DNA from: a virus
IMG/VR virus record: IMGVR_UViG_3300017987_000001
Location: 143,858 to 207,857 of that record
Length of the DNA stretch: 64,000 bases
Strand: one strand, 5' to 3'
Shown here: in pieces, positions 63,616 through 63,752 of the stretch
Position numbering within the stretch: position 1 is the first letter of the stretch
How the letters are laid out: each line of letters opens with the position of its first letter
Position numbers and translations under genes: made by a program
Notes under the pieces: generated by a model
Databases searched by the model: none
What the model saw: only the letters and a program-made list of their open reading frames with translations
Told to the model about the DNA's origin: nothing

Positions 63616-63752
63616 GGCACGACAAGAATTGACGAGTCAACCCCGTCAGGGTCAGCTGCTCTGCCACTGAGCTATACGCCCATCAATGGGCGCAGAAGGA
63701 TTCGAACCCCCGACCCGCTGATTATGATGTAGACCCGATCAGCATTCGTACC
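63616..63752 (-). ncRNA. Structured element, copy 6, holding a permuted tRNA(CAU)
   Basis: Outer stem GGTACGA/TCGTGCC, ATGCTGATC, inner stem GGGTC/GACTC, TACA, then the second half of the permuted tRNA, and TTCTTG before the outer stem. The 5' part of the permuted tRNA is separated from the inner stem by two small hairpins (CCC/GGG and TTGAC/GTCAA). Confidence 0.7.
63651..63727 (-). tRNA. Circularly permuted tRNA(CAU)
   Basis: Order of parts: TCATAA (loop), TCAGC (anticodon 3' stem), variable GGGTC, T arm GGGGG-TTCGAAT-CCTTC, acceptor 3' strand TGCGCCC, linker ATTGAT, acceptor 5' strand GGGCGTA, TA, D arm GCTC/GAGC, GCTGA (anticodon 5' stem). The break lies inside the anticodon loop, between positions 32 and 33. 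No encoded CCA. Met or Ile2 identity is undecided. Confidence 0.72.

What the first reader, a model, noticed from the sequence alone, without database searches (positions are those of the whole stretch)
63616..63752. Second permuted tRNA, anticodon CAU, broken inside the anticodon loop
The same order reversal occurs with a different tRNA and a different break point (loop position 32/33), with linker ATTGAT, acceptor GGGCGTA/TGCGCCC. Two independent permutations in the same element argue against a chance rearrangement. Neither permuted gene encodes CCA whereas all 33 normal tRNAs here do, so the 3' end must be finished by cellular CCA addition or trimming.
Basis: seen in the sequence. Interest (0 to 1): 0.92.

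Follow-up and report, generated by a model that had tools for sequence, protein, structure and literature searches.

The report
Phage Y RNA mimicking permuted tRNA
The "permuted tRNA" is really a Y RNA of the known bacterial YrlA class: a stem that carries the conserved Y RNA motifs, with a tRNA look-alike joined on in rotated order, in a phage that also encodes the Ro60 protein these RNAs normally partner.

Summary
In detail: window 63616-63752 (- strand) reads 3' half, linker, 5' half of a CAU tRNA with a closed 7-bp acceptor stem. It is not a permuted tRNA gene in the accepted sense. It is a YrlA-type Y RNA. A covariance model built only from bacterial YrlAs hits exactly these coordinates (72 bits, E 3e-18) and the sister element at 63186-63319 (93 bits, E 3e-24). 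The order T arm, closed acceptor stem, D arm is the YrlA order. Outer strands CGAAUGC...CUUGUCG are near-invariant in YrlA. The phage encodes a Ro60/Rsr protein about 47 kb away, if circular. In 70 of 80 bacterial loci with such an RNA, a homologue of that protein lies in the same locus (at most 8 kb). Four more Y RNA-like elements lie in the same 1-kb cluster. Three ordinary CAU tRNAs make a fourth unnecessary, and no RtcB or other RNA ligase was found. One part may be under-described: many YrlAs, bacterial and phage, keep a complete anticodon arm (U33, purine 37), and 19 of 90 keep NCCA in the acceptor loop, so the module is a whole rotated tRNA. Anticodons drift, including A34, which argues for mimicry or decoy rather than decoding.

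The parts
63616..63752 (-). YrlA-type Y RNA 'Y6', with a complete circularly permuted tRNA module carrying a CAU loop
   Evidence: R1 model 72.2 bits, E 2.8e-18 at exactly these coordinates; Rfam RF02553 35.5 bits full length, below gathering 69
63746..63752 (-). Y6 lower (Ro-type) stem, 5' strand GGTACGA, followed by ATGC
   Evidence: sequence; CGAATGC invariant in 30 bacterial YrlAs
63616..63622 (-). Y6 lower stem, 3' strand TCGTGCC, overlapping the end of CTTGTCG
   Evidence: sequence; TTGTCG near-invariant in 30 bacterial YrlAs
63732..63737 (-). Y6 upper stem 5' strand CGGGTC (partner GACTCG at 63633-63638)
   Evidence: sequence; R1 alignment
63722..63728 (-). Y6 anticodon loop ATCATAA (CAT at 63724-63726)
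   Evidence: numbering back from the T arm (method); ARAGORN on rejoined halves gives cat
63717..63721 (-). Y6 anticodon stem 3' strand TCAGC (partner GCTGA at 63652-63656)
   Evidence: sequence; ARAGORN cloverleaf of rejoined halves
63695..63711 (-). Y6 T arm
   Evidence: and alignments
63675..63694 (-). Y6 acceptor stem TGCGCCC / GGGCGTA closed by loop ATTGAT (63682-63687), no CCA
   Evidence: sequence
63658..63672 (-). Y6 D arm
63186..63319 (-).
   Evidence: R1 93.1 bits, E 3.4e-24; RF02553 48.4 bits
62980..63080 (-). divergent YrlA-like RNA 'Y2' (T-arm, closed acceptor and D-arm like; no anticodon arm)
   Evidence: R1 33.2 bits, RF02553 27.3 bits; these scores are within the range of tandem tRNAs, so it rests also on the CGAATG...CTTGTCG strands
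62707..62775 (-). Y RNA-like hairpin 'Y1', no tRNA module
   Evidence: AAGGCGAATG...TCGCCTT stem plus GTAGGGAT/ATCTCTAC; fold z -2.5
63334..63391 (-). Y RNA-like hairpin 'Y4', no tRNA module
   Evidence: R1 25.7 bits; fold z -2.5
63525..63596 (-). Y RNA-like hairpin 'Y5', no tRNA module
   Evidence: GTCGGCGA/TCGCCGAC stem; fold z -3.7

Best explanation
The element is a noncoding Y RNA of the YrlA class, made by a large tRNA-rich phage as a partner of the phage's own Ro60 orthologue (Rsr). The outer stem (GGUACGA/UCGUGCC with CGAAUGC and CUUGUCG strands) is the presumed Rsr-binding handle. The inner part is a complete tRNA shape in circularly permuted order, its acceptor stem closed by a 6-nt loop and its anticodon arm joined to the Y stem. 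The full-length RNA most likely acts without being cut into a tRNA: it gates or tethers Rsr and presents a tRNA mimic to tRNA-binding enzymes, either to steer an exoribonuclease (PNPase in the published RYPER model) or to act as bait for tRNA- or anticodon-directed nucleases. Shown here: identity as YrlA, presence of Rsr in the same genome, linkage of YrlA and Rsr in relatives, integrity of the anticodon arm. Inferred: binding, tethering and the decoy role. The confidence given is for the identity; mechanism is split roughly evenly between RNA-decay scaffold and nuclease decoy.
For: A model trained only on bacterial YrlAs hits the exact coordinates. Rfam YrlA aligns end to end at both permuted elements, and its consensus has the same T arm - closed acceptor - D arm order. 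The phage protein G000 46470-48188(-) has vWA_Ro60 above cut-off, TROVE 22.8 bits against 23, and best solved-structure match 2nvo 'Ro sixty-related protein, RSR' at 4e-16. Myxococcus phage Mx1 has a 45% identical TROVE-annotated protein and an unannotated YrlA between two of its tRNA genes. In viral contigs G002, G003, G004 and G007, and phages Quantum and Sebata, the YrlA lies about 0.1-3 kb from the Ro gene. In 70 of 80 bacterial loci (up to 8 kb) a homologue of the phage Rsr lies in the same locus as the YrlA. Six CGAATG on one strand within 983 bases, expected 0.4, P about 5e-6. The YrlA description (tRNA-like domain, basal stem binding Rsr, PNPase) is from PMC8394870.
Against: Rfam's own gathering score (69) is not reached (48.4 and 35.5); none of the 12 other viral or phage records reached it either. 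Y6's 5' strand is UACGAAUG, not the GNCGAANG I recall as the Ro motif. The rsr gene is about 47 kb from the Y RNAs (if the record is circular), not adjacent. Expression and binding are untested.
Confidence: 0.93

Rival explanations
1. A true circularly permuted tRNA gene: the ends are joined at the anticodon loop, the linker is removed by RNase P and RNase Z, CCA is added, and a functional tRNA with anticodon CAU results.
For: All tRNA parts are present and ARAGORN reads the rejoined halves as tRNA-Met(cat). 19 of 90 bacterial YrlA acceptor loops keep NCCA exactly at 73-76 against 1.6 expected.
Against: Three normal CAU tRNAs exist. No RtcB or RNA_ligase-family ligase found (the PF09511 search rang in no control genome, and says nothing). 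The junction has 10- and 13-nt unpaired strands inside a Y stem, not the bulge-helix-bulge of known permuted tRNAs (PMC3978253). Across the family the anticodon drifts, with A34 in 15 of 53. Some members close the acceptor stem with a 1-nt or no linker by the same numbering.
Confidence: 0.03
2. Same RNA, but its job is to be bait: authentic anticodon loops on a nuclease-resistant body soak up host anticodon nucleases, protecting the phage's tRNA set. (A rival on mechanism, not on identity.)
For: Anticodon arm kept with U33 50/53 and R37 49/53. A decoy role for YrlA was suggested in PMC7790460. Phage tRNAs that evade tRNA-cleaving defences are documented (PMC10264068, PMC11555353; abstracts seen).
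Against: Many YrlAs lack the anticodon arm. Common ancestry with tRNA could explain the conserved loop.
Confidence: 0.35
3. A chance rearrangement or decayed tandem tRNA pair without function.
For: Tandem tRNA pairs do score weakly against the model (44.5 bits).
Against: Specific outer strands, six elements on one strand, same architecture across phages and bacteria beside Rsr.
Confidence: 0.02

Closest known systems
YrlA, bacterial Y RNA (Rfam RF02553)
   Same: Order of arms, closed acceptor stem, outer CGAAUGC/CUUGUCG strands, Ro60/Rsr partner in the genome.
   Different: Below Rfam's gathering score; keeps a full anticodon arm that the Rfam consensus treats as an insert (but many bacterial YrlAs have it too); sits in a phage tRNA array away from rsr.
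Phage Ro/Y RNA pairs (Myxococcus phage Mx1; mycobacteriophages Sebata, Myrna; Streptomyces phage Quantum)
   Same: tRNA-rich large phages with a Ro-like protein and YrlA-like RNAs.
   Different: At the cut-off used (E 1e-8) one or two YrlAs each in those four phages; here two clear permuted-tRNA ones plus four further Y RNA-like elements.
Circularly permuted tRNA genes of red/green algae and Thermofilum (PMC3978253, PMC3218864)
   Same: 3' half - intervening sequence - 5' half.
   Different: Those have a BHB junction, a splicing endonuclease and ligase, and mature tRNAs; here the flanks form a Y stem and no such product is known.

Membership tests
YrlA Y RNA | Match to the Rfam YrlA model at its gathering score | tested here: not met
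   48.4 and 35.5 bits against 69; the cut-off also fails for YrlAs lying close to TROVE genes in other phages, so it is not a sound exclusion
YrlA Y RNA | Match to a covariance model of bacterial YrlAs, most of them rsr-linked | tested here: met
   72.2 bits E 2.8e-18 and 93.1 bits E 3.4e-24
YrlA Y RNA | tRNA-like module in order T arm, closed acceptor stem, D arm | tested here: met
YrlA Y RNA | Lower stem with conserved CGAAUG / UUGUCG strands | tested here: met
   sequence against alignment A1; Y6 departs at the base two before CGA from the motif as I recall it
YrlA Y RNA | Ro60/Rsr encoded in the same genome | tested here: met
YrlA Y RNA | Gene beside rsr (usual rather than strictly defining) | tested here: not met
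   about 47 kb apart if circular; met in relatives
YrlA Y RNA | Binding to Rsr; D and pseudouridine made by DusA and TruB | not testable with these tools
   needs RNA and protein
Circularly permuted tRNA gene | 3' half upstream of 5' half with an intervening sequence at the acceptor end | tested here: met
Circularly permuted tRNA gene | Bulge-helix-bulge at the junction | tested here: not met
   by inspection of the junction: unpaired strands of 10 and 13 nt between the anticodon stem and the upper Y stem
Circularly permuted tRNA gene | Splicing endonuclease and ligase available | tested here: inconclusive
   no RtcB or RNA_ligase in the phage; PF09511 search uninformative; a host enzyme is not excluded
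Circularly permuted tRNA gene | Circular intermediate and mature tRNA | not testable with these tools
   needs RNA from infected cells

The most novel reading that the evidence does not exclude
YrlA RNAs with intact anticodon arm and NCCA are, at least in part, processed as permuted tRNA precursors: the Ro stem is removed like an intron, the ends are sealed (RtcB is encoded beside rsr and Y RNA in some bacteria), and a working tRNA or a tRNA with an unusual anticodon is released under stress or infection.
Probability: 0.05. Interest if true: 0.85.

Novelty: new member of a known kind. Interest (0 to 1): 0.4.

Why it matters
It resolves a striking 'permuted tRNA in a phage' as a Y RNA with its protein partner, and warns that sequence readers and tRNA finders can take such RNAs for tRNAs (a called tRNA-Asp of phage Myrna overlaps one). 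It also shows that the tRNA module of many YrlAs is a whole rotated tRNA with a well-formed anticodon loop, which makes origin (for example from tandem tRNAs) and decoy function directly testable.

Tried and rejected
Permuted tmRNA: only a partial 19.7-bit match. Twister-sister ribozyme: 19.4 bits, below cut-off, and overlaps the tRNA module. RF04354 (Plastid-ycf2) matches on the + strand are antisense of tRNAs. Amber recoding of the phage because of a CTA tRNA: TAG-ended ORFs read through far in 12 of 27, but reading TAG through gains little coding length; not supported. First viral pattern scan was too loose: few of 120 stretches were real. blastn against phages only found ordinary tRNAs. 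The TROVE Pfam model misses most of these Rsr proteins in bacterial genomes; phmmer with the phage protein finds them. My first hairpin count picked the longest stem rather than the canonical position and was replaced by numbering back from the T arm. The library does not hold Chen 2014 or Sim and Wolin 2018 and 2020, so I cannot say whether the anticodon arm in YrlA has been described.

Full report
Observation. On the - strand at 63616-63752 there is a tRNA in rotated order: loop ATCATAA, anticodon stem strand TCAGC, variable loop, T arm, acceptor strand TGCGCCC, linker ATTGAT, acceptor strand GGGCGTA, D arm, anticodon stem strand GCTGA. ARAGORN and Rfam tRNA scans do not call it as it stands; rejoined in normal order it is called tRNA-Met(cat). 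The sister element at 63186-63319 behaves the same way (tRNA-Arg, acg). The break here is between 31 and 32 rather than 32/33, a one-base ambiguity.

What it is. A permissive Rfam scan matches both elements end to end with YrlA, a bacterial Y RNA that mimics tRNA. The match takes in the outer strands CGAAUGC and CUUGUCG (CUAGUCG in the sister element), which no tRNA explains. Both scores are below Rfam's gathering score, so I built an independent test. A DNA pattern scan of bacterial genomes and a structural parser collected 107 distinct bacterial YrlAs. A covariance model from 30 of them, containing no window sequence, hits 63186-63319 at 93.1 bits (E 3.4e-24) and 63616-63752 at 72.2 bits (E 2.8e-18). 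The best false match, a pair of neighbouring tRNAs, has 44.5 bits.

The partner protein. The same phage record (207,857 bases; the window is its last 64 kb) encodes a 572-aa protein at 46470-48188(-). It matches vWA_Ro60 above cut-off, TROVE just under it, and the solved Rsr 2nvo at 4e-16. Its closest annotated relative is a TROVE protein of Myxococcus phage Mx1, 45% identical over 91%. Mx1 has a YrlA, not annotated, between tRNA-Glu and tRNA-Ile. In four viral contigs and in phages Quantum and Sebata the YrlA lies about 0.1-3 kb from the Ro gene. In 70 of 80 bacterial loci with a parsed YrlA, a homologue of the phage Rsr lies in the same locus of at most 8 kb. In the window's phage the two are about 47 kb apart if the record is circular; tRNA genes at both ends of the record suggest that it is.

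The neighbourhood. Between 62.7 and 63.75 kb there are six elements with CGAATG on the - strand, expected 0.4: two clear YrlAs, one divergent YrlA-like RNA and three short Y RNA-like hairpins, interleaved with ordinary tRNA genes.

A finding on the side: the anticodon arm. Numbering back from the T arm, 67 of 107 bacterial YrlAs have room for an anticodon arm. In 53 of these all five stem pairs form, when the strand after the D arm supplies the outer pairs. Dealing that strand anew among sequences gives 17.3 on average and at most 26 in 500 trials. In those 53, U33 is kept in 50 and a purine at 37 in 49, while 34-36 are nearly free. A34 occurs in 15, only one of them ACG, which is unlike decoding tRNAs of bacteria (general knowledge). 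In 90 YrlAs with a canonical acceptor stem, NCCA follows position 72 exactly in 19, against 1.6 (at most 6 of 1000 shuffles); 19 of 24 CCA triplets in the loops sit at that one place. The module is therefore a complete rotated tRNA in many members, and the Ro stem enters at varying points: mostly 28/29 in bacteria, 27/28 in the window's Y3, 31/32 in Y6 and in L136, L258, L366, L376 (Y3 and Y6 placed by hand). By eye, mycobacteriophages Myrna and Sebata also keep the arm. Caveats: the sequences are related, were picked by a pattern that requires CGAATGC, CTAC and GGTTCGAGTCC, and the shuffles do not correct for ancestry.

How it works. Published work on YrlA (summarised in PMC8394870) has the basal stem on Rsr and the tRNA-like domain on PNPase, together degrading structured RNA. 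PMC7790460 raises the alternative that the tRNA-like domain inhibits an anticodon nuclease. For a phage with about 39 tRNAs both are sensible, and an intact anticodon loop fits the second somewhat better. I treat both as inferred.

Why not a tRNA gene. Three normal CAU tRNAs are present, the junction is not a bulge-helix-bulge (the hallmark in PMC3978253), the phage has no RtcB or RNA_ligase-family ligase by these searches (one search is uninformative), and the family's anticodons drift.

Verdict. Observation confirmed; interpretation partly supported. A new member of a known kind, with a detail (complete anticodon arm and fossil CCA in YrlA) whose novelty I could not check because the key papers are not held.

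Noticed in passing
L285, L292, L296, L297, L304, L326, L361 and other bacterial loci: Many bacterial YrlA RNAs carry a complete anticodon arm with U33 and purine 37, and 19 of 90 carry NCCA in the acceptor loop. The Rfam YrlA consensus does not show this.
   Followed up: partly
phage Myrna NC_011273 95152-95223 (L433 3153-3224): The annotated tRNA-Asp overlaps a YrlA-model match at 95155-95283; the annotated tRNA may be part of a Y RNA.
   Followed up: no
window 29279-29353 (-): A tRNA with anticodon CTA (amber; called Pyl by ARAGORN) lies alone about 22 kb from the tRNA array. TAG read-through gave no clear sign of recoding.
   Followed up: partly
window 57656-60203 (-): NAD salvage genes next to the tRNA array: a NAPRTase-family protein, an isochorismatase-family protein and NAD synthase.
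   Followed up: no
window 63090-63179 (-): A probable long-variable-arm tRNA-Tyr (GTA) missed by ARAGORN, weakly matched as tRNA-Sec.
   Followed up: partly
window 43269-46349 (-): One ORF combines a uracil-DNA glycosylase domain with a family A DNA polymerase and its exonuclease.
   Followed up: no
window 61131-61202 (-): A CAU tRNA with an odd D arm and no CCA at the ARAGORN boundary.
   Followed up: no
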